Source: Xenophilus aerolatus (GTDB lineage Bacteria; Pseudomonadota; Gammaproteobacteria; Burkholderiales; Burkholderiaceae_C). From it: 64,000 bases of DNA. The translations under genes were made by a program, and so were the position numbers. The stretch is taken from positions 1 to 64,000 of the forward strand of contig JASCNX010000009.1 in NCBI GenBank assembly GCA_029968055.1, in the 5' to 3' direction. Positions 48,396 through 64,000 of this stretch are shown here, piece by piece. Under the pieces are notes generated by a model. It was given only the letters and a program-made list of their open reading frames with translations, did no database searches and was not told the DNA's origin. Every line of letters begins with the position of its first letter. Position 1 is the stretch's first letter.

Positions 48396-50048
48396 TCAGC
48401 GCGCGGGCCGGATGCGGTAGATCGCGTTGTTCAGGTCGGCAGACACGTACACGCTGCCGTCCGCGCCCATGGCCACGCCGGTCGGCACGTAGGGCGGCGG
48501 CAGGCCGGGGCCGGCGGCCAGGCCGATGGGCAGGTTCTCGGCCACGGTGCGTTTGCTGCCGTCGGCCGGGTCGATCTCCACCAGCCGCCTGGCGGCCGAC
48601 TCGGCCACGATGAAGCTGCCCCACGGCGTCTGCGCCAGGCCTTCCGGCATGGCCAGGCCCTGGGCCACGGCCACCGGCGCGCCGCCGGCCAGCGGCACGC
48701 GCAGCAGCCGGCCCGCCGCCTCGGTGACGTAGACCGCGCCATCGGCGCCCAGCACCATCTGCACCGGCCCCTGGATGCCGCTGGCCAGCACCTGCCGGGT
48801 GGCGAACTGGTCGCCGCTGGCGCGCGTGATGCTGCCGGTGGCGATCTCGGCGACGAGCACGCTGCCGTCCTCCAGCGGAATCGCGTCGTAGGGCGCCTTC
48901 AGGCCGTGGATCACGGCGGTGGTCTTGCGCGTCGCGCGGTCCACCAGCTGCACCGTGCCGGTGAACCACGACGACAGCGCGAAGCGCGTCTTCGACAGCC
49001 CCACCGCGAAGGGGTATTCCAGCTCCGGCTCGCGCTGCATGCGGAAGATGTCGCTCACCGCGCCGTTCTTCAGGTCGACCTCGCGGAAGCCGAACACGTC
49101 GGCCACCCAGAGCCGGTCGCCCTCGGCCTTCATGCCTGCGGGCACCGCGACGGCGCCGCCCGTGAGGCGCCGCAGCTCGCCGGTGGCGGGGTTGAAGGCG
49201 TCGACGGCGTTGTTGGCCATGTTCGACACGTAGATCGTGCCGTCGGGGGCGATCGCGAGGTTGTCGAGCGAGGGCGTCAGCTGCTTGGCCACGGTCTTGC
49301 GGCCGGTGGCGAGCTCGACGCGCACCAGCTCGCCCGAGCGCGCGTCGACCACCCACAGGTTGCCCTTGCCGTCGAGGTTGGCCGCGGCCGGGATCTGGAA
49401 GCCGCCGGCGATCACGGTCATGTCGCCGTTGGCCGGGTTGATCTTCACCACCTGGCCCTTGAACCAGAGCGGCCCGTACAGCCAGCCGTCCGGGCCGACC
49501 TCGAAGCCGTTGAAGCCGCCCATGTCCTTCTTGATCAGCCGAGGCGGCAGCTGGCCGGCACGGTCGATCTCCCACAGCGCATCGCCCAGGAACACCTGCG
49601 AGGCATAGAGCTTGCCGCTGCGGCGGTCGAAGTCCACCGAGTTCAGGCCGGGCAGGTCCTTGGCCAGCACGCGCATCGGCGCGCCGTCGCTCTCGCGGTA
49701 GCGCAGCATGCCCATGAGGTAGTTGGTCCAGGCCAGCTCGCCGCGCGGGCCGACGGCGATGTCGTCGGCCTGGCCTTCGGGGGCGGGGATGAACACGCGC
49801 GCCTGGCCGGTGCGGCGGTCGACCTCCCACATGCTGTTGCCCACGACCGAGCCCGCCAGCAGGCGGCCCTGGCCGTCCACCGCCAGGCCGTGCACGCCGG
49901 CGAAGGCCGACGGCTGCACCAGGGCCTCGGGCGCGGACCAGGCCGCGGGCCGCGTCGGCGGCGCCGTGCTGCAGCCGGCGAGTGCGGCGAAAAGGGCGGG
50001 AACGGCGAGCGCGAACGCGGCCGTGCGGCGGCGCATTGACATGGGCAT
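48396..50048 (-). CDS. exported lipoprotein with NHL/SMP-30-type beta-propeller
   Basis: 550 residues from the ATG at 50048 (MPMSMRRR), after CCTTCCGGAGACAG. Lipobox LAALAG-C (Cys about 26). The rest is a chain of about ten propeller-type repeats of the form AVDGQGRLLAGSV, AVGPRGELAWTNYL, EVGPDGWLYGPLW, LDGKGNLWVVDARSG, AIAPDGTIYVSNMANN, VLGADGAVYVTEAAGRL, AMGADGSVYVSADLNN. Such proteins include sugar-lactone lactonases and protein-interaction propellers; catalytic residues cannot be assigned. It is divergent from the AtuA gene. Confidence 0.85.
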   Translation of the reverse strand: MPMSMRRRTAAFALAVPALFAALAGCSTAPPTRPAAWSAPEALVQPSAFAGVHGLAVDGQGRLLAGSVVGNSMWEVDRRTGQARVFIPAPEGQADDIAVGPRGELAWTNYLMGMLRYRESDGAPMRVLAKDLPGLNSVDFDRRSGKLYASQVFLGDALWEIDRAGQLPPRLIKKDMGGFNGFEVGPDGWLYGPLWFKGQVVKINPANGDMTVIAGGFQIPAAANLDGKGNLWVVDARSGELVRVELATGRKTVAKQLTPSLDNLAIAPDGTIYVSNMANNAVDAFNPATGELRRLTGGAVAVPAGMKAEGDRLWVADVFGFREVDLKNGAVSDIFRMQREPELEYPFAVGLSKTRFALSSWFTGTVQLVDRATRKTTAVIHGLKAPYDAIPLEDGSVLVAEIATGSITRASGDQFATRQVLASGIQGPVQMVLGADGAVYVTEAAGRLLRVPLAGGAPVAVAQGLAMPEGLAQTPWGSFIVAESAARRLVEIDPADGSKRTVAENLPIGLAAGPGLPPPYVPTGVAMGADGSVYVSADLNNAIYRIRPAR

Positions 50049-50286
50049 GCGGTCTGTCTCCGGAAGGTTGTTGTGGGTGCAGGCGAAGTCTTCGCAGCGT
50101 GGGCTCGCCACGCAGTCACCCAGGGGACAAACGCCCGCGCCGAAGCGGCCGGTGACGCGCGTCGCGCCTGTGCCGACCGGCCTGAACTCACGGGCCGACG
50201 GCCAATCCCGTCCAGCAGCCAGTTGGCGCAAGCCGGGCCGGCGGGGCCCTGCGTACGCTCCGGCGCAGCCAGCCACCGCACCGCCC

Positions 50287-52140
50287 ATGACCGCCCCCAC
50301 CCCCCGACCACCCGCCCGCCGCACCGTGCGCATCGGCGGCGCCTCGGGCTTCTGGGGCGACAGCAGCGTGGCGGCGGGGCAGCTCGTGCGGGGCGGTGCC
50401 CCCATCGACTACCTCGTCTTCGACTACCTGGCCGAGACCACGATGGCGGTGCTGGCCGGTGCGCGCCTGCGCAAGCCCGAGATGGGCTGGGCCACCGATT
50501 TCGTCGAGGTCGCCATGCGCGACGTGCTGGCCGACTGCGTGGCGCGCCGCATCCGCGTGGTGAGCAACGCCGGCGGCGTGCACCCCGAAGCCTGCGCCGA
50601 GGCGCTGCGTGCGCTGGCGCGGGAGCAGGGCGTGGACGTGCGCGTGGCCGTGGTGCTGGGCGACGACGTGAGCGGGCAACTGCCGGCGCTGCACGCGGAC
50701 GGCGTTCAGGACATGGCCAGCGGCGAGCCGGTGCCCGCGCGCGCCCTGAGCGCCAATGCCTACCTCGGCGCGCAGGGGATCCGCGCAGCGCTGGCGGCCG
50801 GTGCCGACGTGGTCGTCACCGGCCGCTGCGTCGACAGCGCCGTCACGCTCGGCCCGCTGCTGCACGAATTCGCTTGGGCCGACGACGACTGGGACCGCAT
50901 CGCGGGGGGCAGCCTGGCGGGCCACATCATCGAATGCGGCTGCCAGGCCACGGGCGGCCTGCACACCGACTGGCAGGCAATCCCCGACTGGCCGGGCATC
51001 GGCTACCCCATCGTCGAGGTGGCCGAGGACGGCAGCTTCACGCTCGGCAAACCGCCCGGCACCGGCGGTGCGATCCTGCGCGCCGCGGTGGCGGAGCAGC
51101 TGCTCTACGAGATCGGCGACCCGGCCGCCTACCTGCTGCCCGACGTGCGCTGCGACTTCACGCAGGTGCGCATCGAGCAGGTCGACGCCCAGGCGGTGCG
51201 CGTGCACGGTGCGCGCGGCGGTCCGCCGCCCACGGGCTACAAGGTGTCGGCCACCGTGCTGGACGGCTGGCGCTGTGCGGCCGCGATGGTGATCGTCGGG
51301 CGCGAGGCGGCGGCCAAGGCGCACCGCACGGCGCAGGCCATCCTGGCACGCACACGGTCGCTGTTCGGTGCGCGCGGCCTGGCCGACTACACGGCCACTT
51401 ACGTCGAGGTGCTCGGCACCGAATCCGTCTATGGCCCGCACGCGCGCGCCGGCGCCGCCGAGGCGCGCGAGGTGCTGATGCGCGTGGTGGTCGACCATGC
51501 CGACAGGAAGGCGCTCGAACTCTTCGCACGCGAGATCGCGCCGGCCGGCACCTCGTGGTCGCCCGGCACCACCGCGCCGGGGTCGATGGCAGGGCGGCCG
51601 CCGGTCGTGCCGCTGATCAAGCCCTTCGCCTTCGTCCTGCCCCGGGACGCGGTGGCGGTCCGTGTGTTGATCGAGGGCGACGAGTTGCCCCCGGCCGCCG
51701 CACCCGCCCTGCAGGCGCCGACGGGCCCCGCGCCGGTGGCACCGCCCGAGGCGGTGGCGCTGCCGGCCGACGCGGTCGAGCTGCCGCTCATCGCGCTGGC
51801 CTGGGCGCGCAGCGGCGACAAGGGCGACCTGGCCAACATCGGCGTCGTTGCGCGGCGCCCCGAGTGGCTGCCCTGGCTCTGGGCCGCGCTCACGCCCGAG
51901 GCCGTGGCCGAGTGGTTCGGCCACCTCATGACGACGCGGCGGGTCGAGCGCTTCCACCTCCCCGGCATCCACGCGCTGAACCTGCTGCTGCACGGCGCGC
52001 TGGCCGGCGGCGGCCCGCGCTCGCCGCGGCTCGACCCGCTCGGCAAGGGCATGGCGCAGATGCTGCTGGACATGCCCGTGAAAGTCCCGCCCCGCGTGGC
52101 GGCGCAGGCAGCGGAAGATGCCGGCCTTGCCAACCACTGA
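50287..52140 (+). CDS. AtuA-family (DUF1446) protein
   Basis: 617 residues. N-terminal AtuA domain (RIGGASGFWGDSSVAAGQLV, DYLVFDYLAETTMAVLAGAR, ADVVVTGRCVDSAVTLGPLL, IECGCQATGG), then a C-terminal alpha/beta module (ALAWARSGDKGDLANIGVVA) found in the same family. The namesake is needed for acyclic terpene (citronellol) utilisation in Pseudomonas, but most family members are of unknown role and the rest of an atu operon (geranyl-CoA carboxylase) is not here. It is followed by an esterase, 10 bp downstream. Confidence 0.9.
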   Translation: MTAPTPRPPARRTVRIGGASGFWGDSSVAAGQLVRGGAPIDYLVFDYLAETTMAVLAGARLRKPEMGWATDFVEVAMRDVLADCVARRIRVVSNAGGVHPEACAEALRALAREQGVDVRVAVVLGDDVSGQLPALHADGVQDMASGEPVPARALSANAYLGAQGIRAALAAGADVVVTGRCVDSAVTLGPLLHEFAWADDDWDRIAGGSLAGHIIECGCQATGGLHTDWQAIPDWPGIGYPIVEVAEDGSFTLGKPPGTGGAILRAAVAEQLLYEIGDPAAYLLPDVRCDFTQVRIEQVDAQAVRVHGARGGPPPTGYKVSATVLDGWRCAAAMVIVGREAAAKAHRTAQAILARTRSLFGARGLADYTATYVEVLGTESVYGPHARAGAAEAREVLMRVVVDHADRKALELFAREIAPAGTSWSPGTTAPGSMAGRPPVVPLIKPFAFVLPRDAVAVRVLIEGDELPPAAAPALQAPTGPAPVAPPEAVALPADAVELPLIALAWARSGDKGDLANIGVVARRPEWLPWLWAALTPEAVAEWFGHLMTTRRVERFHLPGIHALNLLLHGALAGGGPRSPRLDPLGKGMAQMLLDMPVKVPPRVAAQAAEDAGLANH

Positions 52141-52150
52141 CGCGAACGCC

Positions 52151-53116
52151 ATGCTGCACCCCCAAGCCCGAGCCCTGATCGACCTCATCGAATCGCGCGG
52201 CCTGCCCCCCACCCACACCCTGCCGCCCGCCGAGGCCCGCGCCTTCTACCGAGAGCGCCGAAGCTTCACCCAGCCCGATGCGCCCGAGGTCGCCGAGGTG
52301 CGCGATCTGAGCGCGCCCGGGCCGCTGGGCGACATCCCGCTGCGCGCCTACCGCCCGCTCGGTGCCGCGCCCGACGCCGTTCTGCCCGTGCTGATGTACT
52401 ACCACGGCGGCGGCTGGGTGATCGGCGACCTGGACACGCACGACGTGCTGTGCCGCGAGCTGTGCAACGGCAGCGGCTGCGCGGTCGTGGCGGTCGACTA
52501 CCGCATGGGCCCCGAGGTGCGCTTCCCCGGCGCCGTGAACGACGTGCTGGCCGCCACGCGCTGGGTCGCGTCGCAGGCGAAGGACCTGCGCATCGATCCG
52601 GCGCGCCTGGCGGTGGGCGGCGACAGCGCGGGCGGCAACCTCGCGGCCGTGGTGTCGATCGCCGCGCGCGACGGCGCCGACGGCCAGGGGCCGCTGCCCA
52701 TCGCGTTCCAGCTGCTCGTCTACCCCGGCACCGACATGCGGCGCGGCCATGCCTCGCACACGACCAACGGCCAGGGTTACGTGCTGACGGCCGACACCAT
52801 CACCTACTTCCACGACCACTACATCGACGATCCGAAGCACGACCTGGACTGGCGCGCCTCGCCGCTGCTGGCCGCGAGCCACGCCGGCCTGCCGCCCGCG
52901 CTGGTGATCACGGCCGGCTACGACCCGCTGCGCGACGAGGGCCTGGACTATGCGCGTGCCCTGAGCGCCGCCGGCACGCGGGTCAGCTACGTCTGCTTCG
53001 AGCGGCAGATCCACGGCTTCATCACCATGGGCCGCGTGCTCGACGAGGCGAACACCGCCGTGGCGCTGTGCGCCGCCGAGCTGCGCCGCGCACTGGCCGC
53101 ACCCGCGCGGGACTGA
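52151..53116 (+). CDS. HSL-family alpha/beta hydrolase (esterase)
   Basis: 321 residues. The hormone-sensitive-lipase oxyanion motif HGGG is at 85-88 (YYHGGGWVIGD), the nucleophile Ser159 in GGDSAGGNLA, Asp in ITAGYDPLRDEG and His in RQIHGFITMG. These motifs make a short-chain carboxylesterase likely. An in-frame ATG at 52118 would overlap the AtuA gene. It follows the AtuA gene and may hydrolyse an ester formed in the same pathway. Confidence 0.93.
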   Translation: MLHPQARALIDLIESRGLPPTHTLPPAEARAFYRERRSFTQPDAPEVAEVRDLSAPGPLGDIPLRAYRPLGAAPDAVLPVLMYYHGGGWVIGDLDTHDVLCRELCNGSGCAVVAVDYRMGPEVRFPGAVNDVLAATRWVASQAKDLRIDPARLAVGGDSAGGNLAAVVSIAARDGADGQGPLPIAFQLLVYPGTDMRRGHASHTTNGQGYVLTADTITYFHDHYIDDPKHDLDWRASPLLAASHAGLPPALVITAGYDPLRDEGLDYARALSAAGTRVSYVCFERQIHGFITMGRVLDEANTAVALCAAELRRALAAPARD

Positions 53117-53361
53117 GGCGCATGCGGCATTGCACGGCCCCACCCAAAATCGTCCGTTTCGACGACGCCGGGCCACGCATGCGCTTCAACAATCGCGCCG
53201 CACCGCGCGTGGGCGTGTCGACTGCCCTTAGGGAAAGCCCCGTGCCGGCGGCACGCCGCGCGGCGGGGGCCGTCGATACGATCCGCCGGACCGCGCCAGC
53301 GCGGCGGTGCGGGGTGCGGTGGGCCGAGTGTCTTGAGAAGAAGCCAAGGAGACCGAGCAGC

Positions 53362-54174
53362 ATGCAGACGACCCGAGTGGTGCACGCCGACGGCGGCGAG
53401 CGCCTGATGTGGCTGACGACGACGCGCGTGTTCTACGCCGGCCTGCTGGGCGTGGCGAGCGAGCGCAACTTCGGTGGCTATGGCATCTACGTGTCGCCGC
53501 GCGGCCTGCCCAACCGCATCCGCATCGGCGGCGGGGCCTGGCAGTCCGGCGAGCTCTTCGTGGTGCCGCCGCAGGTGCCGCATCGCGTGCAGAGCGCCGA
53601 GCCGCTGATCTTGAACCTGCTGGTCGAAGCCGATGCGGCCGACCCCGATGCGCTGCCCGCCGTGCTGCGCCACTGCGGTCCGGTGGACGACGCTGACTTC
53701 GTGCGCCGCGTGCGCGCCGCCCATGCGCGCCTGCTGCATGCGTCCGGCCGCGAGTGCTTCGACGGCATCGACTTCGACCCCCTGTTCTTCGGCCAGACGC
53801 TGGCACCGCGGCCGATGGACCCGCGCATCCGTCGCGTCGTCGAGCGCGTGAACGCCGACCCCGCCGCGGCCCGCTCGGCCGAGCAATGCGCCGAGGACGT
53901 GCACCTGTCCTTCTCGCGCTTCCTGCACCTGTTCAAGGCGCAGACCGGCATGACTTACCGGGCCTTTCGCGCCTGGAAGCGTGCGCGCAGCCTGCTGCGC
54001 TACGTGCGCGAGTCGGCCAGCCTCACCGACATCGCGCTCGAGGCGGGCTATCCCGACTCCACGCACTTCAGCCACTCGATCCGGCAGATCTACGGCCTCA
54101 AGCCCAGCGAGATCGTCGCCGGATCGAGGCGCCTGGCGCTGCACGACGCGGCCGGCGGGGTGCTATGCCATTGA
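53362..54174 (+). CDS. AraC-family transcriptional regulator
   Basis: 270 residues. N-terminal cupin-like sensor region (FGGYGIYVSPRGLPNRIRIG, GELFVVPPQVPHRVQS) and a C-terminal double helix-turn-helix (CAEDVHLSFSRFLHLFKAQT and SLTDIALEAGYPDSTHFSHS) ending GLKPSEIVAGSRR. It lies 72 bp upstream of livH in the same direction and is the most likely local controller of the transport/ligase operon. Between the esterase and this gene (53117-53361) I see no gene. Confidence 0.92.
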   Translation: MQTTRVVHADGGERLMWLTTTRVFYAGLLGVASERNFGGYGIYVSPRGLPNRIRIGGGAWQSGELFVVPPQVPHRVQSAEPLILNLLVEADAADPDALPAVLRHCGPVDDADFVRRVRAAHARLLHASGRECFDGIDFDPLFFGQTLAPRPMDPRIRRVVERVNADPAAARSAEQCAEDVHLSFSRFLHLFKAQTGMTYRAFRAWKRARSLLRYVRESASLTDIALEAGYPDSTHFSHSIRQIYGLKPSEIVAGSRRLALHDAAGGVLCH

Positions 54175-54246
54175 CGGCGGCCCACGCTCGCCGCATGGGC
54201 GCTTCGGGCCGCTTCGGCCCGGGGCACTGAGCGAAAGGCGCGCGCC

Positions 54247-55122
54247 TTGCAAGTCCTCCAGCTCCTTCTCTCGGGCATCGCGCAAGGCTGCATCTACGGC
54301 CTCATCGCGCTGGGCTTCGTGCTGATCTACAAGGCCACCGAGACGGTGAGCTTCGCGCAGGGCGACCTGATGATGCTCGGCGCGTTCACGGCCTTCGCCG
54401 GCATGACGATCTTCGGCCTGCCCTTCTGGCTGGCGGCCATCCTGGCCGTGGTGGCGATGGCGGCCTTCGGCATGCTGGTCGAGCTGGCGGTCATCCGGCC
54501 CATCCTCGGCCAGCCGCAGTTCTCGATCGTGATGCTCACCATCGGCATCGGCTACGTGCTGCGCGGGCTCATCACCATGGTGCCCGGCATCGGCACCGAG
54601 ACGCACACGCTGCCCGTCCCCTACAAGGACCAGGTGTGGAACCTGGGCGGCCTGGTCGTGAACGTGGAACAGGCGGTGGTGATCGGCGCCACGGCGGTGC
54701 TGTGTGTGCTGCTGTTCGCGATGTTCCGCTACAGCAAGCTGGGCATCGCGATGCAGGCCAGCTCGCAGAACCAGCTCGCCGCCTATTACATGGGCATCCC
54801 GGTCAAGCGGCTCAACGGGCTGGTATGGGGCCTGGCCGCCGGGGTGGCCACGGTGGCCGGCATGCTGCTCGCGCCCATCACCTTCGTGCACGCCAACATG
54901 GGGCTCATCGGGCTCAAGGCCTTCCCGGCCGCGGTGGTGGGCGGCTTCGGCAGCCTGCCGGGCGCCATCGTCGGCGGGCTGGTGATCGGCGTGGTCGAGT
55001 CCTTGGCGGGCTTCTACCTGCCCGACGGCTTCAAGGACACGGCGCCCTACATCGTGGTGCTGGCGATGCTGATGCTCAAGCCGAACGGGCTGTTCGGCGA
55101 GAAGCTGCGCAAGAAGGTGTGA
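54247..55122 (+). CDS. livH: LivH-type ABC transporter permease
   Basis: 291 residues from a TTG start (GAAAGG 8 bp upstream). About eight membrane helices; ASSQNQLAAYYMGIPVKRLN is the cytoplasmic EAA-like loop, and GLKAFPAAVVGGFGSLPGAI is conserved in LivH. It pairs with LivM to import branched-chain amino acids or, as often in Burkholderiales, other organic acids. The next gene begins 125 bp later, across an inverted-repeat element. Confidence 0.93.
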   Translation: MQVLQLLLSGIAQGCIYGLIALGFVLIYKATETVSFAQGDLMMLGAFTAFAGMTIFGLPFWLAAILAVVAMAAFGMLVELAVIRPILGQPQFSIVMLTIGIGYVLRGLITMVPGIGTETHTLPVPYKDQVWNLGGLVVNVEQAVVIGATAVLCVLLFAMFRYSKLGIAMQASSQNQLAAYYMGIPVKRLNGLVWGLAAGVATVAGMLLAPITFVHANMGLIGLKAFPAAVVGGFGSLPGAIVGGLVIGVVESLAGFYLPDGFKDTAPYIVVLAMLMLKPNGLFGEKLRKKV

Positions 55123-55137
55123 GCATGTCCACGACAT

Positions 55138-55222
55138 CCGCAGAAGGCGCAAAAGAGGCAAAGAGAACCTTGAATGAATTCTTTCGCGTCCTCTGCGAAA
55201 CCTTTGCGTCCTCTGCGTCCGG
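55138..55222. repeat. imperfect inverted repeat element between livH and livM
   Basis: Left arm 55138-55163 (GCAGAAGGCGCAAAAG...) pairs imperfectly with the right arm 55202-55222 (CTTTGCGTCCTCTGCG). GCGTCCTCTGCG occurs twice in the right half, 20 bp apart (55186, 55206). The same word family (CGCAGAGG-CGCA) builds the element at 56333-56448, so both belong to one class of GCAGAGGACGCAAAG-type repeats. Confidence 0.75.
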
Positions 55223-55247
55223 CAGTCCGCTTTTCTGACTGACTTCG

Positions 55248-56324
55248 ATGCGCTACATCTTCAAGACCAGCTACGCGCAGGACATCGCGCTCGCCAAGCA
55301 TGGCGGGCACCGCTTCTGGTACTCGCTGCTGGGCGTGGTGCTGATCGCGGCGCCCTGGCTGCTCGACGAGTACTGGCTCGCGCAGCTGAACTTCGTGCTC
55401 ATCTACTCGGTGGTCGGGCTGGGGCTGATGCTGCTGGCGGGGTTCACCGGGCAGTTCTCCATCGGGCATGCGGCCTTCCTGGGAACGGGCGCGTACGCGC
55501 AGGGCGTGCTGACCAACCTGGGCCTGCCCTTCCCGCTGGCCATGGTGGCGGCGGCGCTGCTGTCTGCGGCGGTGGGCGTGGTGGTGGCGATGCCGGCGTT
55601 GCGCGTCAAGGGCATCTACCTGGGCATCGCGACGCTGGCCTTCGGCTTCATCGTGGAAGAGGTGTTCGCGCGCTGGGAGAGCGTCACGGGCGGCAACGCC
55701 GGCCTGCACGTCAAGTCGCCCCGGCTCTTCGGCCTGGACTTCGGCAGCGGCGAGGCCTTCTACTTCGTGTGCCTGGTGACCACGGTGCTGTGCACCCTGG
55801 GCGTGCTCAACCTGCTGCGCGCGCCGACCGGCCGCGCCTTCGTCGCCATTCGCGATTCGGAGATCTCGGCGCAGAGCATGGGCATCCACCTGGCGCGCTA
55901 CAAGACGCTGTCGTTCGCGATCTCCGCCGCGCTGGCCGGGCTGGGCGGCGCGCTCTATGCGCACAAGATCAGCTTTCTCTCGCCCGACCAGTTCAGCATC
56001 CTGCAGTCGATCGACCTGCTGCTGCTGGTGGTGATCGGCGGGCTGGGCTCGGTGCACGGGGTGTTCCTCGGCGCGATCTTCCTGATCTCGATGCCGCAGT
56101 TGATCGCGATGTCGAAGGACTTCCTGCCGGCTGCCATCGGCCAGGCGCCGGGGCTGCAGGGCCTGGTGTACGGCGTGGTGCTGATCGCCTTCGTGCTCTT
56201 CGAGCCCATGGGGCTGTACGGCCGCTGGCTCAAGGTCCGAACCTACCTGCAGCTGTTCCCGTTCTATCGCCGGGGCATGTTCAAGCGCCAGAAGTCGTTC
56301 ACCAAATCGGACCGGCTGAAATGA
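55248..56324 (+). CDS. livM: LivM-type ABC transporter permease
   Basis: 358 residues, nine or ten membrane helices. LLLAGFTGQFSIGHAAFLGTG, RVKGIYLGIATLAFGFI and AIRDSEISAQSMGIHLARYK (EAA loop) are LivM hallmarks. A hydrophilic C-terminal tail of about 35 residues (FKRQKSFTKSDRLK) is typical. The start codon has no recognisable ribosome binding site, as the repeat element ends 25 bp before it. The stop is directly followed by another inverted-repeat element. Confidence 0.93.
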   Translation: MRYIFKTSYAQDIALAKHGGHRFWYSLLGVVLIAAPWLLDEYWLAQLNFVLIYSVVGLGLMLLAGFTGQFSIGHAAFLGTGAYAQGVLTNLGLPFPLAMVAAALLSAAVGVVVAMPALRVKGIYLGIATLAFGFIVEEVFARWESVTGGNAGLHVKSPRLFGLDFGSGEAFYFVCLVTTVLCTLGVLNLLRAPTGRAFVAIRDSEISAQSMGIHLARYKTLSFAISAALAGLGGALYAHKISFLSPDQFSILQSIDLLLLVVIGGLGSVHGVFLGAIFLISMPQLIAMSKDFLPAAIGQAPGLQGLVYGVVLIAFVLFEPMGLYGRWLKVRTYLQLFPFYRRGMFKRQKSFTKSDRLK

Positions 56325-56332
56325 AAAACGGA

Positions 56333-56448
56333 CAGCCGAACGCAGAGGGCGCAGAGATGTCGCAGAGGGCGCAGAAGGACAGCCAGAAGTCTTTCGGTTT
56401 TCTTTTTTGCGACCTCTGCGTGTCCTTTGCGCCCTCTGCGTTCGGCTG
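56333..56448. repeat. inverted repeat element with 21-bp perfect arms between livM and livG
   Basis: Left arm 56333-56353 and right arm 56428-56448 are perfect reverse complements (core CGAACGCAGAGGGCGCA). Pairing can continue inward with mismatches through the second CGCAGAG word. The centre is T-rich (TTTCGGTTTTCTTTTTTG). It starts 9 bp after the livM stop and ends 21 bp before livG. Confidence 0.9.
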
Positions 56449-56469
56449 CCCGGATTCATCCCGCGCATC

Positions 56470-57282
56470 ATGAGCCACGACGTCCTCCTCTCGGCCCAGG
56501 ACCTGAGCGTGCGCTTCGGCGGCGTGCTGGCCGTGAACAAGGTGAGCTTCGACGTGCGCCGCGGCGAGGTGTTCACGCTGATCGGGCCCAACGGTGCGGG
56601 CAAGACGACGGTGTTCAACCTGATCAGCCGCATCTACCAGCCGACCACGGGGCAGATCACCTGGCACGGCGAAGCCGCGCCGCTCAAGCTCACGGACCAG
56701 CCGCCGCACGCCATCGCGGCGCTGGGCATCGCGCGCACCTTCCAGAACATCGAGCTGTTCGAGCACGCGACGGTGCTGCACAACCTGCTGATCGGCCGCC
56801 ACACGCACCGTGCGACGGGCTTCTTGAGCGAGCTGTTCTTCACGGCCGCCACGCGCCGGGCCGAGATGGCCGCGCGCGAGAAGGCCGAGCAGGTGATCGA
56901 CCTGTTGGACCTGCAGCACCACCGCGATTCGCTGGTGGCAGGCCTGCCGTACGGCGTGCGCAAGGTGGTGGAGCTGGCCCGCGCGCTGTGCACCGAACCC
57001 AAGCTGCTGCTGCTCGACGAGCCCTCGTCGGGCCTGAACGTCGAGGAGACGGCCGACATGGCCTTCTGGATCCAGGACATCCAGCACGAGCTGGGCATTT
57101 CGGTACTGATGGTGGAGCACGACATGACGCTGGTGTCGAAGGTGTCGGACCGCGTGCTGGCGATGAACCAGGGCGAGGTGCTGGCCACGGGGTCGTCGCG
57201 CGAGGTGCAATCGGACCCGAAGGTGGTCGAGGCCTACCTGGGGACGGTCGAGGATGTGAGCAGCTTGCGGAGGGCGGCGTGA
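56470..57282 (+). CDS. livG: LivG-type ABC transporter ATPase
   Basis: 270 residues. Walker A GPNGAGKTT, Q-loop RTFQNIELF, Walker B LLLLDEPSSGLN, switch His in LMVEHDM. The signature region reads LPYGVRKVVELARAL in place of LSGGQ, a divergence usual in LivG. It opens SAQDLSVRFGGVLAVNKVS. The start at ATG 56470 has no ribosome binding site because the repeat element abuts it. Confidence 0.94.
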   Translation: MSHDVLLSAQDLSVRFGGVLAVNKVSFDVRRGEVFTLIGPNGAGKTTVFNLISRIYQPTTGQITWHGEAAPLKLTDQPPHAIAALGIARTFQNIELFEHATVLHNLLIGRHTHRATGFLSELFFTAATRRAEMAAREKAEQVIDLLDLQHHRDSLVAGLPYGVRKVVELARALCTEPKLLLLDEPSSGLNVEETADMAFWIQDIQHELGISVLMVEHDMTLVSKVSDRVLAMNQGEVLATGSSREVQSDPKVVEAYLGTVEDVSSLRRAA

Positions 57283-57317
57283 AGGCTTCGGAGATGTCGT
57301 GCCCCATGGGCCGGCCG

Positions 57318-57556
57318 CCCGGCATGCGCCGCCGGCCCTGCGATGCCGGTGCGCCGGCCCCCTTCGGGGGCTTCCCTGCGATGCTCGGCCGGGGCTCGCG
57401 TCGCAGAACTCGCTGCGTTCACTTCGTTCACTCCGCTCAAACAGCTGCGACGAGTCAGTGCACGAAGCACGCCTGTCCTTCGGCAGGCGTGCCTCGCCCC
57501 GGCCTGCGCTTCTTGGCGGCGCACAAGGCATCGCAGGGCCGGCGGCGCATGCCGGG
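57318..57556 (+). repeat. covarying four-helix structured repeat, copy 1 (livG-livF gap)
   Basis: Outer arms 57318-57347 / 57527-57556 are a perfect 30-bp inverted repeat. Inside, in order: helix III 57357-57362/57366-57371; the word CTGCGATGCTCGG; helix I 57399-57406/57445-57452 around a 38-nt loop (AACTCGCTGCGTTCACTTCG...); CACGAA; helix II 57467-57475/57484-57492 with loop TCCTTCGG. The same order occurs in copies 2 and 3 with different stem sequences. Confidence 0.9.
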
Positions 57557-57634
57557 CTCCGCGGTGGCGCGCACGCGTCGCTTCTTATGGGGCGCCGCGG
57601 CAACCCCGCGTGGTTCGGGCGCACGGTATCCACG

Positions 57635-57819
57635 GCGCGGGGCGGCAGGCAGCGGGGAGCGAATCGACGCGGCCGAGCAGCGCAGCCAGGCGGGGAAAAA
57701 GAAGGACGCATGTTTGAGCGAAGCGAGTTTGCGGCCTTCCCCCGCCTGGCGAGCAGCGCAGGGAAGTCGCCGCAGGCGACCCGCGGCGTTTGAGCGGACC
57801 GGTGCCTGCCGCCCCGCGC
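57635..57819 (+). repeat. second palindromic element in the livG-livF gap
   Basis: Nested perfect or near-perfect arms: 57635-57651/57803-57819 (17 bp), 57686-57695/57740-57749 (10 bp) and 57701-57710/57730-57739 (one mismatch). The apex holds TGTTTGAGCGAAGCGAGTT, a word I associate with Comamonadaceae intergenic repeats. With copy 1 it fills the 577-bp gap 57283-57859, in which I see no gene. Confidence 0.75.
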
Positions 57820-57859
57820 CGGCGCCCCCCTTCGGCGAATCGTTGGAAGGCGCCCAAGC

Positions 57860-58633
57860 ATGAGCACCGAAGTCCTCCAACTCCTCAACGTGGAGAGCGC
57901 CTACGGCCCCATCAAGGCCATCCGCGGTGTGAGCCTGAAGGTGCGGCAGGGCGAGATCGCCACCGTGCTGGGCAGCAACGGCGCGGGCAAGACGACGATC
58001 CTCAAGACCATCTCGGGCATCATCGATCCGCGCAAGGGCACGGTCCATTTCAAGGGCCAGGACATCACCGCCAAGGACCCGGCCTTCATCGTCCAGCAGG
58101 GGTTGTCGCACGTGCCCGAGGGCCGCGAGGTCTTTCCGCTGCTGTCGGTGAGGGACAACCTCCTCATGGGCGCCTACACCCGCCGCGATCGCGACGGCGT
58201 CGCGCGCGACATCGAGACCGTGTTCGGCTACTTTCCCATCCTGCGCGAGCGCGCCTCGCAGGATGCGGGCCTGCTCTCGGGCGGCCAGCAGCAGATGCTC
58301 GCCATCTCGCGCGCCATCATGGCCGCGCCGCAGCTCATCCTGCTCGACGAGCCCTCGCTCGGCCTCTCGCCCAAGCTCACCAAGGAGATCTTCGAGATCG
58401 TCGTGCGCATCAACCGCGAGCGCGGCACCACCATCCTGCTGGTCGAGCAGAACGCCAACATGGCGCTCAACGCTGCCGACTACGGCTACGTGCTGGAGAA
58501 CGGCCGCATCGTCATGGAAGATTCCTGCGAACGCCTGCGCGAGAAGGACGACATCAAGGAGTTCTACCTCGGCCTGCAGGACGACGGCGTGCGCGGCGAG
58601 CGACGCTGGAAAAAGAAGAAGACCTGGCGATGA
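57860..58633 (+). CDS. livF: LivF-type ABC transporter ATPase
   Basis: 257 residues. Walker A GSNGAGKTT, signature LLSGGQQQMLAISRAI, Walker B LILLDEPSLGLSP, switch His position replaced by Gln in LLVEQNANMAL as usual for LivF. Opening LLNVESAYGPIKAIRGVSL. The basic C-terminal tail (GERRWKKKKTWR) is an extra 15 residues. GGAAGG precedes the start. Its stop overlaps the ligase start (ATGA). Confidence 0.95.
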   Translation: MSTEVLQLLNVESAYGPIKAIRGVSLKVRQGEIATVLGSNGAGKTTILKTISGIIDPRKGTVHFKGQDITAKDPAFIVQQGLSHVPEGREVFPLLSVRDNLLMGAYTRRDRDGVARDIETVFGYFPILRERASQDAGLLSGGQQQMLAISRAIMAAPQLILLDEPSLGLSPKLTKEIFEIVVRINRERGTTILLVEQNANMALNAADYGYVLENGRIVMEDSCERLREKDDIKEFYLGLQDDGVRGERRWKKKKTWR

Positions 58634-60519
58634 GCGCATCCCCTTCCTCCCTCCACGCCCCGGCCGGGCTCTGGGACCTCGGCCACCTGCGGCCTCGCAC
58701 CGACATCGCGGTGCCGGGCGACACCATCCCGGCCGTCTTCTGGAACGCCGTGGCGCAGCGCGGCGACGCCGTGTGGATGCGCCAGAAGGAATTCGGCATC
58801 TGGCGCAGCTGGAGCTGGCGCCAGACCGCGGAGACGGTGCAGGAGATCGCTGCCGGCCTGCTGGCCCTGGGCTTCGCGCGTGGCGAATGCGCGTCGATCC
58901 TGTCGAACACGGTGGTCGAATGGGTGCTGTGCGACCTGGCGGTGCTCAGCTGCAACGGCGTGGCCAACGGCATCTACCCGACCGACGCCGCCTCGCAGGT
59001 GCACTACCTGTGCGAGGACTCGCGCACCACGCTGCTCTTCGTGGAAGACGACGAGCAGCTCGACAAGGCGCTGGAGGTGCGCGCCGGCCTGCCGCTGCTG
59101 CGCATGATCGTCGTGTTCGACATGGACGGCCTGCGCGATCTCGACGACCCGGGCGTCATGAGCCTGGACGCGCTGCGCGCGCTCGGGCGCGAGCACCTGC
59201 AGTCGCGCCCGCAGGAAGTGCGCGAGCGCGTCGACGGCTGCCGGCCGGAGGACCTCGCCATCCTCATCTACACCTCGGGCACCACCGGCAAGCCCAAGGG
59301 CGCGATGCACTCGCACCGTGGCCTGGTCTACACCATGCGCGGCTACAACACGCTGGTGGCGCAGGACGAGCGCGACGAGCGCATGTGCTTCCTGCCGCTG
59401 TGCCACGTGGCCGAGCGCATGGGCGGCGAGTACTTCGCGATGTACACCGGCTCGGTGCTCAACTTCGTCGAGAACCCCGAGACGGTGCCCGAGAACGTGC
59501 GCGAGATCGCACCCACTGTCTTCACCGCCGTGCCGCGCGTGTGGGAGAAGTTCTACTCCGGCGTGATGATCGCGCTCAAGGAAGCCAGCGGCGTGCAGCA
59601 GGCCGCCTATGCCTGGGCCATCGGCGTCGGCCGGCAGATCGCCGACAAGGTGCTGGCCGGCGAGGCGGTCGACGCCGGTCTGAAGTTCCGCTTCCGGCTC
59701 GCGCGCTGGCTGGTGCTGGACAACGTGCGCAAGCTCATCGGCATCCACCGTGCGCGCTTTCTCGTCACCGGGGCGGCGCCGATCTCGCCGGAGCTGGTCA
59801 AGTGGTACCTCTCGCTCGGCGTGCCGATGCTGGAGGTGTGGGGCATGACGGAGAGCTGCGGCGCCTCCACCGGGGTGCCGGCGGCGCGCATCAGGCCCGG
59901 CTCCATCGGCCCGGCCGCCGGCTACAACGAGGTGCGCATCGACCCCGCCACGGGCGAGATCCTGGTGCGCGGACCCAACGTGTTCATGGGCTACCTCAAC
60001 CAGCCCGAGAAGACGGCCGAGACCATCGACGCCGAAGGCTGGCTGCACACCGGCGACGTCGGCCGGATGGAGGAGGACGGGTATTTCCGCATCACCGACC
60101 GCATGAAGGACATCATCATCACGGCGGGCGGCAAGAACATCACGCCCAGCGAATGGGAGAACGAGCTCAAGTTCAGCCCCTACGTGACCGATGCGGTGGT
60201 CATCGGCGATGCGAGGCCCTACCTGACGGTGATCATCATGATCGACCAGGAGAACGTCGAGAAATTCGCGCAGGACCACGACGTGCCCTTCAGCAACTAC
60301 GCCAGCCTCACGCGCGCCCGCGAGGTGCAGGAGCTGATCCAGGGCGAGATCGACCGCGTGAACACGAAGTTCGCGCGCGTCGAGCAGATCAAGAAGTTCT
60401 TCCTGCTCGACACGCAGCTGTCGGCCGAGGACGAAGAGCTGACGCCGACGATGAAGCTCAAGCGCAAGCTGGTGCAGACCAAGTACGCGGCGCAGATCGA
60501 ATCCATGTACCGCGCCTAG
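58630..60519 (+). CDS. AMP-dependent acyl-CoA synthetase (long-chain/aryl-CoA ligase type)
   Basis: 629 residues. P-loop-like A3 motif LIYTSGTTGKPKGAMHSH, A5 VWGMTESCGAST, A7 GWLHTGDVGRMEEDGYF, A8 RITDRMKDIIITAGGKNITP, and a late Lys in TPTMKLKRKLVQ (A10). Length and the KNITPSEWENELKFSPYV segment match long-chain fatty-acid/FadD15-type ligases. Coupled to livF by ATGA overlap, it probably activates the compound imported by the Liv-type transporter, so the true cargo may be a carboxylic acid, not an amino acid. Confidence 0.93.
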   Translation: MSASPSSLHAPAGLWDLGHLRPRTDIAVPGDTIPAVFWNAVAQRGDAVWMRQKEFGIWRSWSWRQTAETVQEIAAGLLALGFARGECASILSNTVVEWVLCDLAVLSCNGVANGIYPTDAASQVHYLCEDSRTTLLFVEDDEQLDKALEVRAGLPLLRMIVVFDMDGLRDLDDPGVMSLDALRALGREHLQSRPQEVRERVDGCRPEDLAILIYTSGTTGKPKGAMHSHRGLVYTMRGYNTLVAQDERDERMCFLPLCHVAERMGGEYFAMYTGSVLNFVENPETVPENVREIAPTVFTAVPRVWEKFYSGVMIALKEASGVQQAAYAWAIGVGRQIADKVLAGEAVDAGLKFRFRLARWLVLDNVRKLIGIHRARFLVTGAAPISPELVKWYLSLGVPMLEVWGMTESCGASTGVPAARIRPGSIGPAAGYNEVRIDPATGEILVRGPNVFMGYLNQPEKTAETIDAEGWLHTGDVGRMEEDGYFRITDRMKDIIITAGGKNITPSEWENELKFSPYVTDAVVIGDARPYLTVIIMIDQENVEKFAQDHDVPFSNYASLTRAREVQELIQGEIDRVNTKFARVEQIKKFFLLDTQLSAEDEELTPTMKLKRKLVQTKYAAQIESMYRA

Positions 60520-60551
60520 TGGGTTCCCATCAACACGAGGAGACAACCGCC

Positions 60552-61718
60552 ATGAAGACCTTCCGCCCCGCCGCCGTCGCGATCGCCCTCCTGGCGCTCG
60601 GTCTGCCGTCCGCCTTCGCCCAGCAGGGCGTGAGCAAGGACGAGATCCGCATCGGCACCATCCAGGACCTCTCGGGCCCGCTGGCCGGTTTCGGCAAGCA
60701 GTCGCGCAACGGCATGCAGCTGCGCGTGGACGAGATCAACGAGCAGGGCGGCATCAACGGCCGCAAGCTCAAGCTGTACGTCGAGGATTCGGGCTACGAC
60801 CCGAAGAAGGCGGTGCTCGCCGCGCAGAAGCTGGTCAACCAGGACAAGATCTTCATCATGGCGGGCCACATCGGCACCGCGCAGAACATGGCGGCGATGC
60901 CGGTGCAGTTCGACAAGAACGTCATCAACTTCCTGCCGATCACCGCGGCGCGCGAGATGTACGAGCCGCTGAACCGGCTCAAGTACTCGTTCGCGGCCAC
61001 CTACTACGACCAGATCCGCATGGCGCTGCCCAAGATGGTGAAGGACAAGGGCGCCAAGAAGGTCTGCACCATCTACCAGGACGACGAGTTCGGCCTGGAG
61101 GTGCAGCGCGGCGCCGAGGCAGGGCTGAAGACGGTGGGCATGGAGCTCGCGGAGAAGACCTCGTTCAAGCGCGGGGCGACCGACTTCAGCTCGCAGGTCG
61201 CGAAGATGAAGGCCGCCGGCTGCGACCTGGTGGTGCTAGGCACCATCATCCGCGAGACCATCGGCACCATCGGCGAATCGCGCAAGACGGGCTTCAACCC
61301 GACCTTCCTCGGCTCCAGCGCGGCCTACACCGACCTCATCCACAAGCTCGGCGGCAAGGCGATGGACGGCATGTACGCGACCATGACGGTGCAGAACCCC
61401 TACACCGACGAGGCCGACCCGAAGATCCGCTTCTGGGCCAACAAGTACAAGACCAAGTTCAACGAGGACCCGACGGTGTTCTCGGTCTACGGCTACATGA
61501 TCGTCGACACCTTCGCGCAGGTGGCGCAAAAGGCCGGCGCCAACCTGAGCACCGACTCCTTCATCAAGATCATGGACGCCAGCACCTTCCCGCCCGACAT
61601 GTTCGGCGCGCCGAAGATGACCTTCACCGCGAGCCAGCGGCTGGGCAACAACGCGTCGCGGCTGTCGCAGATCGTGGATGGGAAGTGGAAGGTGGTGTCG
61701 GACTACGTGGCGCAGTGA
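60552..61718 (+). CDS. periplasmic ABC substrate-binding protein (LivK/HAAT family)
   Basis: 388 residues with a signal peptide (AAVAIALLALGLPSAFAQ). Type 1 periplasmic fold: DEIRIGTIQDLSGPLAGFGK, KLYVEDSGYDPKKAVLAAQK, CTIYQDDEFGLEVQRGAEA, ATDFSSQVAKMKAAGCDLVV. Binds the cargo of the LivHMGF transporter. Family members bind branched-chain amino acids, amides, urea or aromatic acids; the ligase next door favours an acid. It ends the operon; 803 bp of repeat-filled DNA follow. Confidence 0.93.
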   Translation: MKTFRPAAVAIALLALGLPSAFAQQGVSKDEIRIGTIQDLSGPLAGFGKQSRNGMQLRVDEINEQGGINGRKLKLYVEDSGYDPKKAVLAAQKLVNQDKIFIMAGHIGTAQNMAAMPVQFDKNVINFLPITAAREMYEPLNRLKYSFAATYYDQIRMALPKMVKDKGAKKVCTIYQDDEFGLEVQRGAEAGLKTVGMELAEKTSFKRGATDFSSQVAKMKAAGCDLVVLGTIIRETIGTIGESRKTGFNPTFLGSSAAYTDLIHKLGGKAMDGMYATMTVQNPYTDEADPKIRFWANKYKTKFNEDPTVFSVYGYMIVDTFAQVAQKAGANLSTDSFIKIMDASTFPPDMFGAPKMTFTASQRLGNNASRLSQIVDGKWKVVSDYVAQ

Positions 61719-61793
61719 GGCGCGCGCGGTTGGCTTGAAGCGGGCGCTGGATCGGCCGCACGCGGGCGCGGGCGCGGGGGCGGAGGTGGGGCG

Positions 61794-62047
61794 CGCGCCG
61801 GCGCCGGGCCCAGGGGGCGCGGGCTCCTGCGGGGTCGGTCGGCCCTGCGGGCCGACTGCGCTGCGGTGCTCGGGCGCGGGGCGGTGCCGCAGAACTCGCT
61901 GCGTTCACTTCGTTCACTGCGCTCAGACAGCTGCGGCAAGCCAGATCACGAAGCCTGTGTGTCCTTCGGCACACAGGCCCGCCCCACGCCCTGCGCGCCT
62001 CGCCGACCCCGAAGTCGCCCGCGCCCCCTGGGCCCGGCGCCGGCGCG
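61794..62047 (+). repeat. covarying four-helix structured repeat, copy 2
   Basis: Outer arms 61794-61824 / 62017-62047 (31 bp, perfect). Helix III 61838-61845/61849-61856; then GCTGCGGTGCTCGGG; helix I 61885-61892/61931-61938 with a 38-nt loop; CACGAA; helix II 61953-61961/61970-61978 with loop TCCTTCGG. Same layout as copy 1, different stem sequences, same orientation. 61719-61793 holds only GC-rich sequence without a gene. Confidence 0.9.
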
Positions 62048-62128
62048 TGGAGGCGGCCGTTGTGCATCAGGTGCGGTGGTCCGCAGCCGCGGGCGTCGAT
62101 CGCGCTGGTCGATCGACCCCCCGACGGA

Positions 62129-62375
62129 GGCCCTGGTGCCGGTGAGGGGGCGGCGGCGCGCCTGTGGGGTGCCGAGGCGCGCAGCGCGGACGGGCTGCGG
62201 GCCTGCCGAAGGACAGGCCCGCTTCGTGATCTGACTCGCGGCAGCTGTCCGAGCGCAGTGAACGCAGTGAACGAAGCGAGTTCTGCCGCGGCCCGTCCGC
62301 GCGAGCACCGCAGGGCAGTCGGCGAAGCCGACCACCCCACCGGCGCGCCGCCGCCCCCTCACCGGCACCAGGGCC
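62129..62375 (-). repeat. covarying four-helix structured repeat, copy 3 (inverted)
   Basis: Outer arms 62129-62162 / 62342-62375 (34 bp, perfect). On the minus strand: helix III 62332-62327/62323-62318; CCTGCGGTGCTCG; helix I 62290-62283/62244-62237 around a 38-nt loop; CACGAA; helix II 62222-62214/62205-62197, loop TCCTTCGG. It lies head to head with copy 2, 81 bp apart. 62048-62128 and 62376-62445 show no gene. Confidence 0.9.
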
Positions 62376-62445
62376 GGCCCACCGCCCCGGAAGGTGCTAC
62401 AGCCGGCAGCAGCGAACTAACACCTCGGTCACCCCACGCCCCCAC

Positions 62446-62474
62446 AAGAAAAAGGGGCCCCGAAAGGGCCCCTT
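62446..62474 (-). terminator. intrinsic terminator of the tctA transcript
   Basis: Perfect 9-bp stem AAGGGGCCC / GGGCCCCTT with loop CGAAA (62452-62474). On the minus strand it is followed by TTTTTCTTGTG. It lies 48 bp past the tctA stop codon. Confidence 0.88.
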
Positions 62475-62521
62475 CGTAGGCGACAGGCGAGCACCCACGC
62501 CCGCCTGCACCAGGTGCGGTG

Positions 62522-64000
62522 TCACTCCTCGACGAAGGCCTCTTCGCGCTTGGACTTCACCGCCGGCAGCAACACGATCACCAGCAGCGCCAGCGCGGCG
62601 ACCAGCAGCCCGGCCGAGATCGGCCGCGTGACCAGCACGCTCCAGCTGCCGCGCGACAGCAGCAGTGCGCGGCGCAGGTTCTCTTCCATCATCGGCCCCA
62701 GGATGAAGCCCAGCAGCAGCGGCGCCGGTTCCACGCGCAGCTTGATGAAGCAGTAGCCGATGAAGCCGAAGATCGCGACCATCCACACGTCGAAGGTGTT
62801 GTTGTTGGTCGAGTACACGCCGATGGCGCAGAACAGCACGATGGCCGGGAACAGCAGGCGGTAGGGCACCTTCAGCAGCTTGATCCACATGCCGATCAGC
62901 GGCAGGTTCAGCACGATCAGCATCAGGTTGCCCAGCCACATCGAGGCGATCAGGCCCCAGAACAGCTCCGGGTTGCTGGTCATCACCTGCGGGCCGGGCT
63001 GGATGTTGTGGATGGTCATCGCACCGACCATCAGCGCCATCACCGGGTTGGGCGGGATGCCCAGCGTCAGCAGCGGGATGAACGACGTTTGCGCGCCGGC
63101 GTTGTTGGCCGACTCGGGGCCCGCCACGCCGCGGATGTTGCCGCGGCCGAAGGCGACTTCGTTCGGGCCCATCTTGAGCTTCTTCTCCAGGGCGTAGGAC
63201 GCGAAGGAGGCCAGCAGCGCACCGCCGCCGGGCAGGATGCCCAGGGCCGAGCCCAGGGCCGTGCCGCGCAGCACGGCCGGCGCCATCTTCTTGAAGTCGT
63301 CGCCGGTGGGCCACAGGCCCGTCACCTTGCTGGTGAAGACCTCGCGGTCCTCGTCGGGCTGCGACAGGTTGCCGATGATCTCGCCGTAGCCGAACACGCC
63401 CATCGAGATCACGATGAAGCCGATGCCGTCGGTCAGTTCGGGAATGTCGAAGGAGAAGCGCGCCACGCCGGAGTTCACGTCGGTGCCCACCAGGCCCAGC
63501 AGCAGGCCCAGCACCACCATCGCGATCGCCTTGAGCAGCGAGCCCGAGGCCAGCACCACCGCGCCGATCAGGCCCAGCACCATCAGGCTGAAGTACTCGG
63601 CCGGGCCGAACTTGAAGGCCAGTTCCGTGAGCGGTGGTGCGAAGGCGGCCAGGATGATGGTGCCCACGCAGCCGGCGAAGAAGGAGCCCAGGCCGGCTGC
63701 CGCGAGCGCCGGGCCTGCGCGCCCCTGCCGCGCCATCTGGTAGCCGTCGATGCACGTCACCACCGAGGACGACTCGCCCGGCAGGTTCACCAGGATGGCG
63801 GTGGTCGAACCGCCGTACTGTGCGCCGTAGTAGATGCCGGCCAGCATGATGAGGGCGGACACCGGCGGCAGCGCGTAGGTGGCCGGCAGCAGCATCGCGA
63901 TGGTCGCGACCGGGCCGATGCCCGGCAGCACGCCGATCAGCGTGCCCAGGATGCAGCCGATCAGGCAGTACAGCAGGTTGGTCCAGGTGACCGCGACGCC
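62522..64000 (-). CDS. tctA: TctA-type tripartite tricarboxylate transporter large permease (5' end outside window)
   Basis: 492 codons visible; the frame stays open to the right edge (…NLLYCLIGCILGTLIGVLPG), so the start lies outside. A GTG inside (63931) is not the start, since conserved sequence continues upstream. About eleven membrane helices; YYGAQYGGSTTAILVNLPGE and GPESANNAGAQTSFIPLLTL are the two TctA signature loops, with the ESANNA substrate/Na+ region. The family (with TctB and a TctC/Bug binding protein) imports citrate-like or other carboxylates. TctB/TctC would lie beyond the edge. Confidence 0.95.
   Translation of the reverse strand, partial: GVAVTWTNLLYCLIGCILGTLIGVLPGIGPVATIAMLLPATYALPPVSALIMLAGIYYGAQYGGSTTAILVNLPGESSSVVTCIDGYQMARQGRAGPALAAAGLGSFFAGCVGTIILAAFAPPLTELAFKFGPAEYFSLMVLGLIGAVVLASGSLLKAIAMVVLGLLLGLVGTDVNSGVARFSFDIPELTDGIGFIVISMGVFGYGEIIGNLSQPDEDREVFTSKVTGLWPTGDDFKKMAPAVLRGTALGSALGILPGGGALLASFASYALEKKLKMGPNEVAFGRGNIRGVAGPESANNAGAQTSFIPLLTLGIPPNPVMALMVGAMTIHNIQPGPQVMTSNPELFWGLIASMWLGNLMLIVLNLPLIGMWIKLLKVPYRLLFPAIVLFCAIGVYSTNNNTFDVWMVAIFGFIGYCFIKLRVEPAPLLLGFILGPMMEENLRRALLLSRGSWSVLVTRPISAGLLVAALALLVIVLLPAVKSKREEAFVEE

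What the first reader, a model, noticed from the sequence alone, without database searches (positions are those of the whole stretch)
57318..62375. Repeat family with covarying helices: a candidate structured RNA or DNA element
Three copies (57318-57556 +, 61794-62047 +, 62129-62375 -) share one layout: long outer stem, helix III, conserved CTGCGRTGCTCG, helix I enclosing a 38-nt loop, CACGAA, helix II with constant loop TCCTTCGG. The loops and words are conserved while the stems differ yet stay perfectly paired. Helix I: CGTCGCAG/CTGCGACG, TGCCGCAG/CTGCGGCA, CGCGGCAG/CTGCCGCG. Helix II: GCACGCCTG/CAGGCGTGC, GCCTGTGTG/CACACAGGC, GCGGGCCTG/CAGGCCCGC. Outer arms of 30, 31 and 34 bp are perfect within a copy and dissimilar between copies. 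Selection for structure, or arm-to-arm correction during copying, would produce this. I cannot match it to a family I know.
Basis: seen in the sequence. Interest (0 to 1): 0.88.

Follow-up and report, generated by a model that had tools for sequence, protein, structure and literature searches.

The report
Paired structured-RNA repeats in Burkholderiales
These intergenic repeats, spread through a group of bacteria, keep an elaborate fold while their stem sequences change, and the strand that seems to fold is the opposite of the one first described, which points to an undescribed structured RNA (or folded DNA strand) whose job is still unknown.

Summary
In detail: the three copies have the stated layout and fold far better than shuffles (z -10.6, -12.1, -14.0). 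A fourth, shorter copy was missed (57633-57821). A covariance model matches 15 of 15 genomes of the genus, 81 of 150 sampled in the family and 55 of 300 in the order. Rfam has no match to the modules. In 92 copies, 38 of 39 core pairs show double changes; 708 cells against 174 in shuffles.

New here is the strand. Mismatches inside the long arms are A.C 69, G.T 9 on the described strand (51 and 9 unique contexts), so tolerated wobble lies on the complement. There, hairpin ends carry CGNAG, many armless copies have a T-rich tail, and folding is more stable in 92 of 104 copies. Close neighbours point their complement strands outward in 50 of 53 cases. RAYT-type transposases show no association.

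Best reading: an undescribed structured RNA in dispersed outward-facing pairs at gene 3' ends, perhaps capping read-through transcripts (inferred). Folded single-stranded DNA remains a serious rival; the core's low wobble rate leaves it open.

The parts
57317..57557 (-). Arms 57317-57347 and 57527-57557, core 57352-57520.
57633..57821 (+). Strand given is the one proposed to fold.
   Evidence: R1 match 57669-57785 on -; arms of 36 nt each side; fold
61794..62047 (-). Module 2 (subtype A, internal loop of the TCATAC/GAAATCG kind). Strand given is the one proposed to fold; described strand is +.
62048..62128 (.). Centre of the module 2 / module 3 pair; no sigma-70-like promoter found.
62129..62375 (+). 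Module 3 (subtype B). Strand given is the one proposed to fold; described strand is -.
56407..57282 (+). ABC transporter ATPase gene, LivG-like (best NCBIfam similarity is under that model's cut-off); start codon not tested.
57860..58633 (+). ABC transporter ATPase gene, LivF-like (best NCBIfam similarity is under that model's cut-off).
60552..61718 (+). Periplasmic binding protein gene (Peripla_BP_6) upstream of module 2.
62522..63931 (-). TctA gene, convergent, beyond module 3 (the ORF start used is mechanical; the gene may begin further out).

Best explanation
A closing stem of about 30 bp, variable in sequence but paired, holds a core of several helices with constant loops. Modules sit mostly at gene 3' ends, and neighbouring modules point their folding strands outward. 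SHOWN: compensatory evolution; strand-specific tolerance of wobble; outward pairing; filled and empty sites. INFERRED: since no promoter was found in pair centres, the fold forms when transcription from one neighbouring gene reads through the pair; the far module then folds in that RNA just before the opposite gene and caps or processes it (termination where the T-rich tail is kept, RNase III-type cutting of the long closing stem where only arms remain), limiting antisense transcription into the neighbour. How new copies arise is unknown. Rough odds: selected single-strand fold 0.9; RNA rather than DNA 0.6; the transcript-end role 0.3.
For: Double changes in 38 of 39 core pairs, 708 cells against 174 shuffled, and 17 both-sides-WC changes against 1 not WC between orthologous copies. 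Wobble on the complement: arms 69:9 raw, 51:9 unique contexts, both subtypes (28:2 and 41:7), orthologue comparison 45:8, core 91:27. Arm wobble rate 4.4% against 4.8% for inner pairs of RNase P in the same family. CGNAG on the complement in helix III of 97 of 137, helix II of 111 of 135 and the large loop of 141 of 141 copies; on the described strand 9, 0 and 6. More stable fold on the complement in 92 of 104 copies. T-rich tail of one type on the complement in many armless copies. Outward orientation in 50 of 53 close pairs.
Against: No transcript evidence. The core wobble rate is only 2.0% against 11.8% over all RNase P pairs, lower than expected for an RNA. The asymmetry weakens with a looser filter (two flanking WC pairs: raw 94:22, unique 43:17). 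The RNase P yardstick kept only pairs that are standard in at least 80% of genes, which favours G.U. DNA parameters prefer the complement as well (99 of 104), so stability does not separate RNA from DNA. The T-rich counts are modest (27 against 9 of 156 at 7 T in 9; 0 against 2 at 8 in 9) and the three reader copies have no terminator-like T run. Single copies in tandem spacers have the proposed RNA strand antisense to the genes in 16 of 21, which is odd for a part of an mRNA.
Confidence: 0.5

Rival explanations
1. Folded single-stranded DNA: the complement strand is recognised as a hairpin DNA by a recombinase, HUH nuclease or replication protein, as attC sites or IS200-type ends are (recalled), and the fold is kept for mobility or maintenance.
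For: Strand-specific fold; CGNAG hairpin ends, a kind of loop known to be extraordinarily stable in DNA (recalled; one search was a search listing only); lower energy on the complement with DNA parameters in 99 of 104; low wobble rate in the core (2.0%); filled and empty sites.
Against: No enzyme found: no association with Y1_Tnp and no recurrent neighbour gene stood out. No match of the module-3 core in the plasmid or phage collections. T-rich tail after the closing stem suggests a transcript end. Other transposases and integron integrases were not searched.
Confidence: 0.3
2. DNA-level arm-to-arm correction (template switching or gene conversion between arms) keeps the palindromes perfect without selection on a transcript.
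For: Arms are mostly Watson-Crick perfect and differ widely between copies; G.U intermediates are few in the core.
Against: It does not predict a strand-specific excess of A.C over G.T, conserved loops, or CGNAG on one strand only. Orthologous copies hold many half-changed pairs, 45 of them wobble on the complement.
Confidence: 0.1
3. REP/REPIN-like repeats moved by a RAYT (Y1) transposase.
For: Inverted pairs of palindromes in intergenic space; one Y1_Tnp gene in this genome.
Against: Of 150 genomes: element and Y1 59, element without Y1 22, Y1 without element 53, neither 16; Fisher p 0.71; seven genomes with 12 or more matches have no Y1_Tnp match. The own Y1 gene's surroundings showed no copy on reading and are not among the 20 matches. 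Modules are about 240 nt with several helices.
Confidence: 0.04

Closest known systems
REP / BIME / REPIN repeats with RAYT transposases (PMC2817692: passages; PMC3733652: word search without hits for this group; PMC3116915: search listing only)
   Same: Dispersed intergenic palindromes in inverted pairs; stems change while pairing is kept (PMC2817692 says this for REPs)
   Different: About 240 nt with several helices instead of 20-40 bp; no association with Y1_Tnp
Candidate structured RNAs of comparative genomics, in particular Burkholderiales-1 in the table of PMC2864571 (passages seen)
   Same: Structured intergenic element, Burkholderiales
   Different: Cannot be compared: that table gives no Rfam number for it and its alignment is in a supplement not available here
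Intrinsic terminators
   Same: GC-rich closing stem followed, in tail-bearing copies, by a T-rich stretch on the complement
attC sites of integrons (recalled)
   Same: One strand folds; stems vary in sequence while structure is kept
   Different: Much larger and branched; integron integrase not searched

Membership tests
Any Rfam 15 family | Match over the family's gathering score | tested here: not met
   At E up to 1, none of the 4 hits in window 50000-64000 overlaps a module; the 20 hits in L001-L005 are all microRNA models under their gathering scores and lie on separate hairpins.
REP/REPIN with RAYT | Short (20-40 bp) palindrome units | tested here: not met
   Modules of about 190-250 nt with several helices.
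REP/REPIN with RAYT | Linked to a Y1 (RAYT) transposase | tested here: not met
   59 of 81 element genomes and 53 of 69 others have Y1_Tnp, p 0.71.
DNA transposon / MITE | Target site duplication at filled against empty sites | tested here: inconclusive
   Two sites compared; spacer flanks are too diverged to define junctions.
Intrinsic terminator | GC-rich stem followed by a T run | tested here: inconclusive
   Not found at the window modules; T-rich tail in 39 of 44 listed cases by my reading.
Structured noncoding RNA | Compensatory changes and G.U tolerance on one strand | tested here: met
   core wobble rate is lower than in RNase P.
Structured noncoding RNA | A transcript | not testable with these tools
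   No expression data.
Burkholderiales-1 (PMC2864571) | Match to its alignment | not testable with these tools
   Supplement not available; only the table line was seen.
Integron attC | Association with an integron integrase | not tested
   No integrase search was run.

The most novel reading that the evidence does not exclude
A previously undescribed large structured RNA family that has spread through Burkholderiales chromosomes as outward-facing pairs at gene 3' ends, with a sequence-free closing stem cut by RNase III: a portable transcript-end cassette that protects neighbouring genes from antisense read-through.
Probability: 0.25. Interest if true: 0.85.

Novelty: new variant of a known kind. 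Interest (0 to 1): 0.66.

Why it matters
If right, many genomes of one bacterial order carry a structured RNA that Rfam lacks, with long closing stems that change freely while staying paired. It gives natural material for studying how long stems evolve and a direct test of whether intergenic repeats act as polar transcript-end devices. The strand test used here (A.C against G.T inside stems) is simple and could assign a folding strand to other unexplained intergenic palindromes without RNA data.

Tried and rejected
Arms made from the target on insertion (inverted duplication of flanking DNA): not favoured, because similar arms recur at different sites of one genome (for example L036 and L050, both G012; module-3 matches that include the arms).

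Y1/RAYT mobilisation: no association. Recurrent neighbour gene: none stood out apart from genes of recurring orthologous sites and ABC ATPases (crude ORF caller, 274 proteins). Plasmid or phage origin: no match of the 169-base module-3 core at E up to 1e-5 in 72,556 plasmid and 50,697 phage records; the other modules were not tried. Promoter in pair centres: mean best score 4.26 against 4.81 in shuffles over 50 centres. Literature: no paper describing the element was found; most subscription papers are not held, and the 2017 list of 224 candidate RNAs is not held.

Caveats on counts. One search was given 44 sources (the window and 43 of the loci L001-L118); one search was given 59 of the 69 loci L119-L187. 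Rows: 62 distinct in A4, 92 in A5, 13 shared, 141 in all. The second set (L119-L187) holds named records and other genera but also some of the window's own genus. Of 141 copies, 134 had enough flank, 104 of those had long arms and entered the arm test; the 30 others are listed. Three pair columns in each alignment were left out of the core wobble count. Copies are related, so counts are not independent; p-values treat contexts as independent. A4, A5 and A6 were fitted to the model, which favours its structure. RNase P: 30 of 39 genes found were used. In some searches only 18 and 9 candidates per genome were scored, so copy numbers there are floors.
Full report
WHAT IS THERE. The three copies are real and as described. 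Module 1 lies between LivG-like and LivF-like ABC ATPase genes; modules 2 and 3 lie between a Peripla_BP_6 binding-protein gene and a convergent TctA gene (the Liv names rest on best similarity below the curated cut-offs). A fourth module at 57633-57821 faces module 1, so each spacer holds a pair.

HOW WIDE. Model R1 was built from two window copies and two copies elsewhere in the own genome. It gives 20 matches in the own genome at E up to 1, matches in 15 of 15 genomes of the genus at E up to 0.01 (2 to 25 each), in 81 of 150 sampled genomes of the family and 55 of 300 of the order, the last two at E up to 1e-4. Of 41 stretches holding an exact core word in named genomes, 14 are Variovorax, 8 Xenophilus, 3 an unnamed Comamonadaceae isolate and 16 metagenome assemblies without a genus. 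A Xenophilus record has the same two scores as G005 of the window's genus (195.8 and 171.3), so the window is probably from Xenophilus (inference).

COVARIATION. On 92 distinct rows (A5), 94.4% of cells pair, 38 of 39 pairs have double changes, with 708 doubly changed cells against 174.4 +/- 9.6 in shuffles and 74-133 when partners are slid. The genus alignment (A4, 62 distinct rows) gives 30 of 39 and 380 against 106. Both are fitted to the model. Orthologous copies in sister species avoid that bias: GGGTAGCGC/GCGCTACCC in L240 is GGGTAACGC/GCGTTACCC in L244, with similar exchanges in helices II and III. Over nine orthologous sets 1658 pairs are unchanged; 17 changed on both sides and stayed Watson-Crick, 1 changed on both sides and did not; 45 one-sided changes give wobble on the complement, 8 wobble on the described strand and 23 another mismatch.

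WHICH STRAND. In the outer arms of 104 copies, of 1610 pairs with three WC pairs on each side, 69 are A.C, 9 G.T and 37 other mismatches. Counting each context once: 51, 9 and 27; genus 27:3, second set 27:6. With two flanking WC pairs the split is weaker (raw 94:22, unique 43:17); with four it is 61:6 and 51:6. Subtype A gives 28:2, the rest 41:7; copies on either strand of their locus agree (38:3 and 31:6); five armed copies from the order-level loci give 3:1. In the core the split is 91:27 with 68 others and 4572 WC. A.C on the described strand is G.U on its complement. RNase P genes of the same family give inner-pair G.U of 4.8% with G.U:A.C 23:5, and 11.8% over all pairs with 93:5. The arms here give 4.4%, the core only 2.0%. 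So the arms look like the inner pairs of an RNA, while the core is stricter than RNase P. A strand-blind repair process would not make the bias. C-to-T damage on a transcribed strand could add to it, but would itself imply transcription of the complement.

MOTIFS ON THE COMPLEMENT. CGNAG occurs in helix III of 97 of 137 copies, helix II of 111 of 135 and the large loop of 141 of 141; on the described strand in 9, 0 and 6. The large loop holds it three times in 95, twice in 20 and once in 26 copies. I read these as GNA triloops and, in the large loop, a CGNAG/CGNAG internal loop with sheared G.A pairs; these motifs are recalled and untested. In variant copies the loop's middle is a Watson-Crick hairpin with a GNA loop, such as GCAAACGAAGTTTGC. 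Energies are lower on the complement in 92 of 104 copies with RNA and 99 of 104 with DNA parameters.

TAIL. Many copies without long arms carry, on the complement, a tail like GGGTCGCCTTTTCTTTG followed by a hairpin like CTTTCTTTTGGCGAAGCAAAAGAAAG. By reading, 39 of the 44 T-rich cases listed are of this type, among them 12 of 22 copies from the order-level loci. Threshold counts are modest: T at least 6 in 9, 44 against 23 of 156; 7 in 9, 27 against 9; 8 in 9, 0 against 2.

ARRANGEMENT. Copies closer than 1000 nt have their complement strands outward in 50 of 53 cases. By a crude gene call, 5 of 73 clusters lie in divergent spacers, four of them the livG-livF site, which homology shows to be tandem. 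Single copies in tandem spacers have the described strand co-oriented with the genes in 16 of 21 cases. Orthologous sites recur among these, so the cases are not independent.

GAIN AND LOSS. At livG-livF, of 15 genomes, six are filled (G000, G005, G006, G007, G009, G014); G001 has a short spacer and G002 an overlap; six others (G003, G004, G008, G011, G012, G013) have 151-166 nt between the blast matches, and the five of these that I read hold no module; G010 is cut by a contig end. Variovorax sp. MHTC-1 has a composite of about 870 nt with two modules at the same site. At a second site, whose genes look convergent from their stop codons, G012 has a pair; G003, G008 and G011 have one module and a remnant hairpin; G000, G005, G006, G007, G009 and G010 have 27 nt between matches (sequences read for all of these but G005); G001, G002, G004, G013 and G014 are unresolved. 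Of 20 fetched pairs from four genomes, 16 fall into six orthologous groups, so many copies are inherited vertically.

MECHANISM. With no sigma-70-like promoter in the centres (such scans are weak in GC-rich genomes), the simplest source of the outward strand is read-through from the gene on the far side. I propose, as inference, that the far module caps or is cut from that RNA before it runs antisense into the neighbour. The free sequence, near-constant length (mostly 35-41 nt outside the core) and pairing of the closing stem suit an RNase III-type processing stem. Folded single-stranded DNA is the main rival, and the low wobble rate of the core keeps it open.

NOVELTY. No Rfam match to the modules, and no paper found in the searches named under Tried and rejected. 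One published candidate, Burkholderiales-1, could not be compared.

Noticed in passing
57633-57821: A fourth, shorter module of the same family, facing module 1; its outer arms are quite different in the orthologous copy of G014 while the core is similar.
   Followed up: partly
56329-56452: Another long imperfect palindrome (48-nt arms, 83% complementary) with CGCAGAGGGCGCAGA words; the word occurs in 5 of 278 fetched loci, four of which cover this place in the window.
   Followed up: no
L142:4831-5704 and L020: Composite elements built of modules plus CTCCC/GGGAG hairpins and a CTTTCTTTTGGCGAAGCAAAAGAAAG hairpin, the L142 one ending in matching inverted sequences.
   Followed up: partly
L256, L257, L258 and L041: A remnant of subtype A: outer arms kept, interior reduced to about GATTTCTGAAAAAGTATGA; alike in three species at one site and present at another.
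   Followed up: no
G000 contigs C1, C4, C5 near their ends: Several own-genome copies lie within about 650 nt of contig ends, so near-identical copies or a neighbouring repeat may break the assembly.
   Followed up: no
L010 (G000:C4:401440-401766): A single Y1_Tnp gene without visible copies of this element around it; Y1_Tnp occurs in 112 of 150 genomes of the family.
   Followed up: yes
L142 and window 57283-57859: Modules occupy the livG-livF spacer in both Variovorax sp. MHTC-1 and the window's genus, while several species of the genus lack them: an old insertion with losses, or a preferred site.
   Followed up: partly
62451-62475: An ordinary terminator-like hairpin with T run on the minus strand between tctA and module 3, so tctA seems to have its own terminator before the pair.
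   Followed up: no
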